A stretch of 64,000 nt of DNA from positions 1-64,000 of the forward strand of contig JAQGDQ010000877.1 in NCBI GenBank assembly GCA_030141605.1. The letters are read 5' to 3'. This DNA is from Tubiluchus corallicola. Lineage: Eukaryota > Priapulida > Priapulimorpha > Priapulimorphida > Tubiluchidae. The position numbers and the translations under genes were made by a program. A model generated the notes under the pieces. It was not told the DNA's origin, did no database searches, and saw only the letters and a list, made by a program, of their open reading frames with translations. Positions 38,151 through 49,987 of this stretch are shown here, piece after piece (the stretch's first letter is position 1; each line of letters begins with the position of its first letter).

Positions 38151-41100
38151 TCATGCAGCTGCTCCACCTTCCGGTTTTATCCACAATTCTGTTTCGTTCT
38201 CTCCGGGCGACAACGGCAGAGGACGAGAGCTGTCCAACGGTCGAGGGACCGAATCCGAGCTGTCGAAGACAGGGGTGCTGTCCGGTGTTGGCCAGTACGG
38301 CTCCGTAGCACTGAGAGGCGACACAAGCAGACTGTTCTGACTACTGCTGCTTTTCCTTGGCTTAAAACCGCCTCTAGCAATATCCCACGCCAGCCTCCCT
38401 TGGTCAGCAAGCGCCGACTTTTGTACAAAGCCCACATCGTCGCTGCTGCACGTGCTGGACACAGACGATTTGGTCAACTTGCTACGACCCCTTTTCTGCC
38501 GGCGCGGGCTACCCGACTGGTGTGCCACTTTTGTTATTTGGTTGTCGTGAGCAGCTGTGACATCTTTGTGCCTTTTCTGCTTGGATTTTGATTTGCGTGG
38601 CGCATTCTCTTCCCCGTGTTTGCTTCGATGCTTGACTCTGGGAGAAGAGTGACGATGGTGCTCTTTATCTTGGCGTTTATTGTCATTCTGTCTAGCAATT
38701 TTTTGAGCATCATCAGTTTGGCTGTCCTTAGGATCTTTTTCTTCCCTTTTCTTGGTTTTACTGTTCTGGTTACTTTTACGCATCTTTGTTGTTTGAACAT
38801 CATTAGCATGCATCGTGTTACTGCGCAATTGTTCAAAAGCAGCTCTGTGGTCTAGCACACTGCAATCTTTAACGCAATCTGGCTCAATGTTGCCGCGATT
38901 GCTGCGCTCAGGCTCAGCCGCTTTACAAGTACTGCCACCTATGCCCACACCGATAGTGTTTTGCAGTCCGGTAACAGATCCATCACGCTTAAGCTTCATT
39001 TCTCCAGTTTCTGAGCAAATCGAAGCAGATCGCACAATTGCATTCACATTCGATTTGCGCGCATTGCCACCTACTGACGACTGTGAGACGGTACAATCGT
39101 CATTGTCAGTTTTAAACTGAGCGGAATTAGCCATACCAAGCATGCCAGTTTTCGTGTTAGCAGTACTGGAACCAGATGTACTTTCCCTCGAAGCGGAAAT
39201 ATCACTAACTACATTAACACACTGATTAGTTTTCACGTTTTGTTCGCACTTATTTGTCAGTCTTTCCTCTTGGTTATCAACTGTCGATCCAATTTTGTTT
39301 GAACCGACTTCATGCGGTAGCGATGGTTTCACCAAGCGTTCATATTCGTGACCACAGGCGCACTCACGGCTATTGTTTGATGGGCCGTTAGCCGTCGAGT
39401 TCACGTTTTTATTTGAAGAAAACTTCGAGTTCAATTCTTGCACCACAGAATCTTTTGCGACGGATCGTCTCACATTGTGAACGCGCAGCGGTTGCGTTTC
39501 GTTCCGTACGTTAACCGGATTCACGGATGTGCCTTGCTCAACAAAGTCATTACAACGCGCTGGCAGGCGGACAAAGTCTGACGAAGACAGTGGACGACCA
39601 GATACAGACTGTGTCTTCTGTGGCCGTGTTGACACTCTGCTAACTTGCGCATTATTTTTTGAACTGTCTTCTAAGAATTTCTGAAGCATGTACCTGGGAT
39701 AAGTCTTTGTAGACGAAGGATTAGGGTTTCGCACTACATCAAGAACAACATACGGCTCTAGACCGTCCCTGCCTGCTTCTGTACGACCTGCATTATATCT
39801 GACTGGAGAACCAGTGTCGGTGAACGATAAATTGTTATTTCTTAAATCGTCAGTCCTGGCCCTTCCAGGTAGAGAGTAATCGGAGATGAACCTTAAGTTA
39901 CCCTGCCTGGGGGTATCATGCATGGACTGCGTCATCCTAGAGTCACAGTCATTTGAAAGTGTATTGTTGTTCCTCTCTACGTTGAAGCTGCGTGACATGC
40001 GATCGGGTCTTGCTAAACTGCTGCTCGCCTGCGACGACGAGCTGCGTAGGGAACGGACGCTAGCTATTGAGCTGCGATTGTTCATTAGTCGTCCCGTTCT
40101 CTGATGCTCGCGTACGCGTGCTGACGACCCACATTCAGCCAAGATGTTTAGTGGGAGATGAGTCACGGCTTTGTTGCAGGCAACGTCGTGAGCCGAATCC
40201 ACTGACGAGTCTTCACAGTTTATGAATTCCTCATTTCTGTACGACACATCGCTCGCACTACTACTAAGATCATCTTGAAGGCAGCCGTCCACGTGAAAGT
40301 CCTCAGAACTGCTGACGCTGTGACTCAAAACAGTCGCCGGATACATTTCCACATTATTGAGCAAATGCCTCTGAGTCATCGCCTCCATTAGTATACGTGA
40401 CGATGGGGATGGATTGGCTTCGTAAGGAGGGGGCGGAATGTTTGGAGATTTGTAAGGCGTGTACGGAGGCGGAGGTTCCTCGTACGGAGGAAACTGTATG
40501 GTCACAGGGTTGTGGTAAATATTTGAGAGATGACTCTCGACATTGTTGGAGAAGCGTCTGGACAAGCTGGGAGTTCCGGAACAATCCCGCTCGTTCAGTC
40601 CTGAAAAGAAACGTAGCACATTAACAAATAGCCGTAGATGTATAACCATTTATCAGCTGTCATTCTCATGTGAAAAGGCTTCTTAGAAGTCATAAGCAAA
40701 TCAATATTGTACTTTAACGGTGAAGAAATGTTAAATATAAAGTCAATGACTTGCTCATGTTTTTCAGCTGCTGTTTGTTCAACGTTTTTGATGATGGAAT
40801 GTTTACTAAAAGATGTTTGTGTGCAGAGGCAAAAAGCTTCCTACTTTACACTTCTGTGTCACGGTCACTGTCACTAGTGTTTTTTCTCCAGTATTTGTCA
40901 CTGTTGTGGTTGTACCTGTTGGTCCCAAAATAAAGGCAAAATCTGGCTAATGTCAATGAATGAATTAAAAATGCAGCCAGTGGTTTTGTAAAATTTTGAG
41001 ACACGGCAAAATGCGACGGTATCGAGAAGCTATTGTTTTGATTAGTTATTAAATATTATTAGTTACTTTGTCACACACACGCACAGACACACGCACGCAC

Positions 41101-49987: not shown

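What the first reader, a model, noticed from the sequence alone, without database searches (positions are those of the whole stretch)
38151..49987. DGCR2 orthologue with only a VWC ectodomain and an about 830-residue cytoplasmic tail
The VWC cysteine pattern, the transmembrane segment and two PPPPY sites identify DGCR2. Seen directly: the signal-peptide exon joins in phase to the VWC exon, and PXMP2 starts 325 bp upstream, leaving no room for LDLR-A or C-type lectin exons. Vertebrate DGCR2 (about 550 aa) has both. The tail is expanded with serine/asparagine-rich sequence and several lysine-arginine clusters that could be nuclear-localisation or RNA/phosphoinositide-binding segments (inference). 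This may be the ancestral architecture, or a lineage loss that turned a lectin-like receptor into a small ligand-binding head on a large intracellular scaffold.
Basis: partly seen in the sequence, partly recalled or inferred. Interest (0 to 1): 0.72.

Follow-up and report, generated by a model that had tools for sequence, protein, structure and literature searches.

The report
DGCR2-like receptor lacking its lectin domain
An animal of unknown species carries what is probably its version of the human gene DGCR2, but this version has no sugar-binding (lectin) head, keeping only a small cysteine-rich head, a membrane anchor and a very long inner tail, which suggests that the lectin part may be a later addition to an older receptor.

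Summary
Five minus-strand exons (38151-49987) join in frame with GT-AG introns into a 967-aa type I membrane protein: signal peptide, ten-cysteine VWC module, one transmembrane segment, two PPPPY motifs and an about 820-residue tail. Cysteine spacing resembles a solved VWC domain and equals human DGCR2 (recalled sequence) in nine of nine gaps. The recalled human protein finds the VWC exon, TM exon and PPPPY segment at E<1e-6, in order, and no credible LDLR-A or lectin exon in the 64 kb. Exon 1 is the only signal-peptide exon passing my thresholds in the 14.6 kb upstream; PXMP2 starts 325 bp away. It is a probable DGCR2 orthologue but, without the lectin domain, not a lectin-group protein; the vertebrate PDZ-binding TVV end is also absent. 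Likely mechanism (inferred): a VWC contact head, with tandem PY motifs recruiting WW-domain (NEDD4-type) proteins. Ancestral form versus lineage loss cannot be decided; the phase-1 intron after the signal peptide fits both. Species unknown; no transcript evidence.

The parts
49945..49987 (-). exon 1: start codon and signal peptide ([14 protein letters not shown]...), ends in phase 1
   Evidence: hydropathy; only candidate in 49352-64000 at 12-residue hydropathy >=2.0 and donor score >=0
49179..49351 (-). exon 2: end of signal peptide and N-terminal part of VWC module (Cys1-Cys7)
   Evidence: (tblastn E 3.6e-8 to recalled human DGCR2)
47703..47802 (-). exon 3: C-terminal part of VWC module (CCxxxC) and linker
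   Evidence: E 1.3 alone, but in order; cysteine spacing across the exon 2/3 join
45775..45912 (-). exon 4: juxtamembrane linker, transmembrane helix and RQRR stop-transfer segment
   Evidence: (69% identity over 29 residues, E 2.4e-7)
38151..40600 (-). exon 5: cytoplasmic tail, 815 sense codons plus stop
40398..40484 (-). tandem PPPPY segment ([20 protein letters not shown]), candidate WW-domain docking site
   Evidence: E 5.4e-7; E 4.8e-4 with low-complexity filter, this piece alone as query
38466..38765 (-). lysine/arginine-rich stretch of the distal tail (residues 764-863)
   Evidence: residues; window coordinates by arithmetic
50313..56248 (+). PXMP2 homologue, divergent neighbour whose start codon lies 325 bp from that of the DGCR2-like gene; bounds the locus

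Best explanation
The locus is the probable DGCR2 orthologue of an unidentified animal, built only from the conserved core VWC + transmembrane helix + tandem PPPPY, with a tail about 650 residues longer than in human. Shown by computation: gene model, ten-cysteine VWC framework, single TM, PY motifs, absence of LDLR-A/CTLD exons in the window. Inferred: after signal cleavage the compact VWC head binds a partner on a neighbouring cell or in the matrix. The tandem PY segment docks WW domains of NEDD4-type ubiquitin ligases, which controls surface level and endocytosis. The long, probably disordered tail acts as a scaffold. I favour the VWC-TM-PY core being older, with LDLR-A and lectin modules entering the phase-1 intron after the signal-peptide exon in the line leading to vertebrates; this last step is the least certain (my odds 0.42) and the confidence below is for orthology, architecture and PY docking together.
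For:: gene model; recalled human DGCR2 matches three exons in the right order at E 3.6e-8, 2.4e-7 and 5.4e-7 (47.8, 45.1, 43.9 bits), while 201 control queries (200 shuffles and the reversal) reach 29.3 bits at most; identical cysteine spacing 21-2-1-7-4-5-9-0-3; 0 of 200,000 shuffles of the ectodomain give such a pattern; published cysteine numbers of CV2 VWC1 give 16-2-1-6-4-6-9-0-2 (computed); no LDLR-A or lectin exon, and a single signal-peptide exon at my thresholds; intron 1 is phase 1. (PMC13133773, one passage): DGCR2 stands in the table of putative WWP1 two-hybrid interactors, with the entries '1' and 'Yes' whose column headings I did not see. (PMC10362570, passages): the human ectodomain binds NRXN1. 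(PMC4487986, PMC514892, passages): no fly or worm homologue in the table; vertebrate CTLD families have practically no overlap with invertebrate ones (a 2004 statement, with one possible exception named there).
Against: The human DGCR2 sequence was recalled from memory. Pfam VWC is below cut-off (the recalled human protein shows no VWC there either). With the low-complexity filter the TM hit vanishes and the PPPPY hit weakens. No transcript, no phylogeny, species unknown. In human DGCR2 the whole ectodomain, which includes the lectin module, is what binds NRXN1, so the function need not carry over. Two donors are moderate. PMC6054721 (passages) calls a nematode lectin (vWA + lectin domain) similar to group XIII DGCR2; if that were homology, a lectin-bearing form would be older.
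Confidence: 0.62

Rival explanations
1. Lineage loss: an older ancestor had LDLR-A + CTLD + VWC, and this lineage lost the first two modules cleanly through phase-1 introns.
For: Intron 1 is phase 1, so clean excision keeps the frame. Loss of exons is common (general knowledge).
Against: No remnant of either module found in the window. [quoted passage not shown]
Confidence: 0.3
2. A paralogue or independent protein: a VWC + TM + PY protein that is not the DGCR2 orthologue, the true orthologue lying elsewhere in the genome.
For: Not excluded: the own genome could not be searched.
Against: Identical cysteine spacing, 69% identity across the TM segment and a shared PPPPYTxYKxPxI...PPPPYEA segment are too specific for convergence; comparator recalled.
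Confidence: 0.12
3. Incomplete gene model: alternative first exons beyond PXMP2, or beyond the window end, add LDLR-A/CTLD in the main transcript.
For: The window stops at 64000; alternative promoters exist in many genes (general knowledge).
Against: A start codon plus good signal peptide already joins in phase and is the only one in 14.6 kb at my thresholds. No LDLR-A or lectin PROSITE-type signature in six frames. The recalled LDLR-A and CTLD pieces find nothing beyond chance: best E 0.046 (16 residues in another frame of the VWC exon) and 1.0.
Confidence: 0.08
4. Nuclear signalling: the short head makes the protein a direct intramembrane protease substrate, and the released basic tail acts in the nucleus with WW-domain coactivators.
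For: Basic clusters between residues 764 and 863 with KRHK and KRGR; short ectodomain; PY motifs.
Against: No cleavage or localisation data; the basic stretch also holds many acidic residues; the tail model is uninformative (single sequence).
Confidence: 0.08

Closest known systems
Vertebrate DGCR2/IDD (SEZ12)
   Same: Signal peptide, ten-cysteine VWC with identical spacing, 69% identical TM/RQRR segment, tandem PPPPY (human sequence recalled)
   Different: No LDLR-A and no C-type lectin domain found, no C-terminal TVV PDZ motif; tail after RQRR 822 aa against 175 in the recalled human protein
C-type lectin superfamily group XIII (DGCR family)
   Same: Homology of the part outside the lectin domain
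   Different: The lectin domain that defines the superfamily is missing, so it is not a member
Crossveinless-2 / chordin VWC domains
   Same: Ten-cysteine framework, CxxCxC and adjacent CC; disulfides 21-48, 46-56, 43-77, 61-78, 67-82 predicted by analogy
   Different: CCxxxC instead of the CCxxC of CV2 VWC1; Cys1 is residue 21, so after a signal peptide of usual length (cleavage site inferred) there is hardly room for an N-terminal clip like the eight-residue one that CV2 VWC1 needs for tight BMP-2 binding (PMC6270503); membrane-anchored

Membership tests
DGCR2 (by descent) | VWC with DGCR2-type cysteine spacing | tested here: met
   Nine of nine gaps equal; comparator recalled from memory
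DGCR2 (by descent) | Conserved TM plus RQRR segment | tested here: met
   69% over 29 residues, E 2.4e-7; comparator recalled; no hit with the low-complexity filter on
DGCR2 (by descent) | Tandem PPPPY segment in the membrane-near part of the tail | tested here: met
   E 5.4e-7, 4.8e-4 with filter; comparator recalled
DGCR2 (vertebrate architecture) | LDLR-A domain | tested here: not met
   0 PROSITE-type matches in six frames of 64 kb; best tblastn E 0.046, 16 residues in another frame of the VWC exon
DGCR2 (vertebrate architecture) / CTLD group XIII | C-type lectin domain | tested here: not met
   0 signature matches (one WIGF tetrapeptide, antisense to exon 5); best tblastn E 1.0
DGCR2 (vertebrate architecture) | C-terminal PDZ-binding TVV | tested here: not met
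   Protein ends GGAAA; no class I PDZ motif at the C-terminus
DGCR2 (by descent) | Orthology by phylogeny or synteny | not testable with these tools
   No animal sequence collection held; own-genome search unanswered in 10 tries
VWC domain | Ten cysteines with CxxCxC and adjacent CC | tested here: met
   Spacing against published CV2 VWC1 numbers; 0 of 200,000 shuffles
VWC domain | Pfam PF00093 gathering score | tested here: not met
   10.3 bits against 27.6 in a 303-aa piece, no hit in a 111-aa piece; recalled human DGCR2 gives no VWC hit either
VWC domain | Fold | tested here: inconclusive
   Exon 2 alone, single sequence: mean pLDDT 55.3, best PDB match E 6.2 and not a VWC
NEDD4-family WW ligand | PPxY motif in the cytoplasmic part | tested here: met
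   Two PPPY matches, residues 195 and 208; binding itself not testable here

The most novel reading that the evidence does not exclude
The locus shows the pre-lectin form of DGCR2: an old VWC-TM-PY receptor into whose phase-1 signal-peptide intron LDLR-A and lectin modules were later inserted, so that the vertebrate 'lectin receptor' of the 22q11.2 deletion region is by descent not a lectin, and its conserved function lies in the VWC head, TM helix and PY motifs.
Probability: 0.42. Interest if true: 0.6.

Novelty: new variant of a known kind. Interest (0 to 1): 0.48.

Why it matters
[quoted passage not shown] a comparative table lists no fly or worm homologue (PMC4487986). A homologue without the lectin domain would separate a conserved core from an added part. 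It predicts which part of human DGCR2 carries the old function, and offers a route by which one vertebrate lectin group could have arisen.

Tried and rejected
BMP trap of the crossveinless-2 kind: considered and held unlikely, because hardly any residues precede Cys1 (residue 21) once a signal peptide is removed (cleavage site inferred, not computed), whereas CV2 VWC1 needs its eight-residue clip (PMC6270503, passages).

A folded domain hidden in the tail: Pfam 0 families at E up to 1; AlphaFold2 on the single sequence gives mean pLDDT 35.5, which with no alignment is no proof of disorder. The Sarcolamban match at the TM (16.3 bits, E 0.0084, cut-off 27) I take for a chance hydrophobic match. 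PDB sequence searches found nothing for the VWC piece and, for a 242-aa piece, only TMH4C4 (6m6z) at E 0.37 over the TM region.

Relatives: scans of viral contigs and genome contigs found none (6 and 28 stretches matched a peptide pattern, none confirmed), as expected for an animal gene. The tail model was not sent to a fold search because of its low confidence. Species identification failed: no tRNA, no Rfam match at gathering score, no own-genome search.

Literature: searches. One search found 182 papers with DGCR2, of which I saw the 40 listed; the other 142 were not seen. One search found 3 papers with the phrase 'integral membrane protein DGCR2'. The rows listed (15; 3) hold no DGCR2 at all, so those two searches say little. 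In what I saw, no listing or passage described a VWC-only DGCR2. One nematode lectin, Hc-CLEC-160 with a vWA and a lectin domain, is called similar to group XIII DGCR2 (PMC6054721, passages); its domains differ from this locus. I saw passages only of PMC514892, PMC10362570, PMC6054721, PMC13133773, PMC4487986, PMC6554986, PMC10266672, PMC5600435 and PMC6270503; other papers only as listings with the start of the abstract.

Full report
WHAT IS THERE. The minus strand of 38151-49987 holds a five-exon gene. Splicing 49945-49987, 49179-49351, 47703-47802, 45775-45912 and 38151-40600 gives GT-AG introns throughout, phases 1, 0, 1 and 1, and a 967-residue protein with one stop at its end. Hydropathy shows two segments only: the N-terminal signal peptide and one transmembrane helix from about residue 118. 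The last exon is one open frame of 815 sense codons plus the stop; 300 Markov controls of the same composition never exceeded 260 in six frames. Its period-3 signal over 2448 nt is 11.3, against at most 3.0 in 81 control stretches. Per 351-nt block, the signal is clear only in part of the distal half (2.6, 4.5, 6.1, 6.3, 4.9, 1.8), while the six proximal blocks score 1.0-2.5 against a 95th percentile of 2.9 in 346 control blocks. For the proximal half the argument is therefore openness plus the PPPPY match, not periodicity.

FIRST EXON AND LIMITS. A scan of the minus strand from 49352 to 64000 for a start codon, a hydrophobic N-terminus (12-residue mean of at least 2.0) and a phase-1 donor scoring at least 0 gives exactly one candidate, the modelled exon 1. 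Its donor score (0.70) lies between the 90th and 95th percentile of all GTs, and that of exon 2 (-0.97) is below the 90th. On the other strand a PXMP2 homologue begins at 50313, 325 bp from the DGCR2-like start codon; its spliced product scores 85.2 bits to Mpv17_PMP22. Intron 1 is only 593 bp (coordinates).

WHAT IT IS. The ectodomain has ten cysteines spaced 21-2-1-7-4-5-9-0-3. Residue numbers published for the solved VWC1 of crossveinless-2 (PMC6270503, passages) give 16-2-1-6-4-6-9-0-2, and none of 200,000 shuffles reproduces such a pattern. Pfam VWC sees it only faintly: 10.3 bits, cut-off 27.6. Human DGCR2 as I recall it (550 aa; ends in TVV as PMC10362570 states; Pfam finds LDLR-A and Lectin_C but no VWC in it) has exactly the window's spacing in nine of nine gaps. 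As a tblastn query it finds exon 2 (47 residues, 40%, E 3.6e-8), exon 4 (29 residues, 69%, E 2.4e-7) and the PPPPY segment of exon 5 (34 columns, 56%, E 5.4e-7), in the right order and strand. The CCxxxC end in exon 3 is found at E 1.3 alone. Of 201 control queries none exceeds 29.3 bits. With pieces as queries and the low-complexity filter on, the VWC hit is unchanged, the PPPPY hit drops from E 3.5e-8 to 4.8e-4, and the TM hit disappears. The comparator was recalled, so this is strong but not formal proof.

WHAT IS MISSING. In the same piecewise search LDLR-A gets at best E 0.046 (16 residues in another frame of the VWC exon) and the lectin piece E 1.0. PROSITE-type signatures of both give no match in six frames of the whole window. 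A lectin domain as conserved as the VWC should have been seen (inference). The C-terminus is GGAAA, not the TVV that binds PSD-95 in human (PMC10362570, passages). After the RQRR the tail has 822 residues, against 175 in the recalled human protein; 756 of them follow the second PPPPY, against 99.

HOW IT MAY WORK. Shown: the anatomy. Inferred: a short head of VWC type on a stalk of about 35 residues contacts a partner near the membrane. The BMP grip of crossveinless-2 is unlikely, because deleting the clip before Cys1 lowers that protein's affinity 1,135- to 2,400-fold (PMC6270503, passages) and here Cys1 is residue 21, directly behind the signal peptide. Within the tail, the tandem PPPPY segment is the only part that matches the recalled human tail significantly. 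Human DGCR2 stands in a table of putative two-hybrid interactors of the WW-domain ligase WWP1 (PMC13133773, one passage; entries '1' and 'Yes', headings not seen). Docking of NEDD4-type ligases is therefore the best-supported output. The TM segment is more conserved (69% over 29) than the VWC (40% over 47), which hints at a role of the helix itself, such as dimerisation. The tail is 69% S/T/N/D/E/K/R/P/G/Q and gave no confident structure from a single sequence. Its basic clusters exceed shuffles modestly (18 windows against 5.5; 2% of 1000 shuffles reach that), so nuclear or RNA/lipid roles stay open.

ANCESTRAL OR LOST. Table 1 of PMC4487986 (passage) lists DGCR2 homologues in zebrafish and mouse and none in fly or worm. 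PMC514892 (2004; [quoted passage not shown] Against this, PMC6054721 (passages) calls a nematode vWA + lectin protein similar to group XIII. If DGCR2 gained LDLR-A and lectin modules in the vertebrate line, its invertebrate relatives would be invisible to lectin surveys. Intron 1 here is phase 1, the phase at which extracellular modules usually enter or leave (exon-shuffling knowledge, recalled; the search found no paper). This fits insertion and loss equally; I lean to insertion.

LIMITS. Species unknown, so that it is an invertebrate is itself an inference from the divergence; no expression data; own genome not searchable; no relatives found in the two collections scanned.

Noticed in passing
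50575-51795 and 57587-58814: A 1.2-kb stretch with PXMP2 exon 2 and flanking intron is repeated downstream of the last PXMP2 exon at 98% identity: recent duplication or assembly artefact.
   Followed up: partly
3956-5393: Tandem array of a 47-bp unit, 31 copies, 96% matches.
   Followed up: no
539-1033 (+): Frame resembling a glucose-6-phosphatase N-terminus (from memory; no Pfam match).
   Followed up: no
23938-28489 (+): Frames resembling an NFATC2IP/SUMO-like protein (from memory; no Pfam match above cut-off).
   Followed up: no
43591-43863 (-): Fragment in intron 4 resembling the C-terminal part of a non-LTR retrotransposon protein (from memory; no Pfam match).
   Followed up: no
45064-45312: Long (GA)n/(CT)n array in intron 4, a source of long meaningless open frames.
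   Followed up: no
49988-50312: DGCR2-like gene and PXMP2 are head to head with 325 bp between start codons, a possible bidirectional promoter.
   Followed up: no
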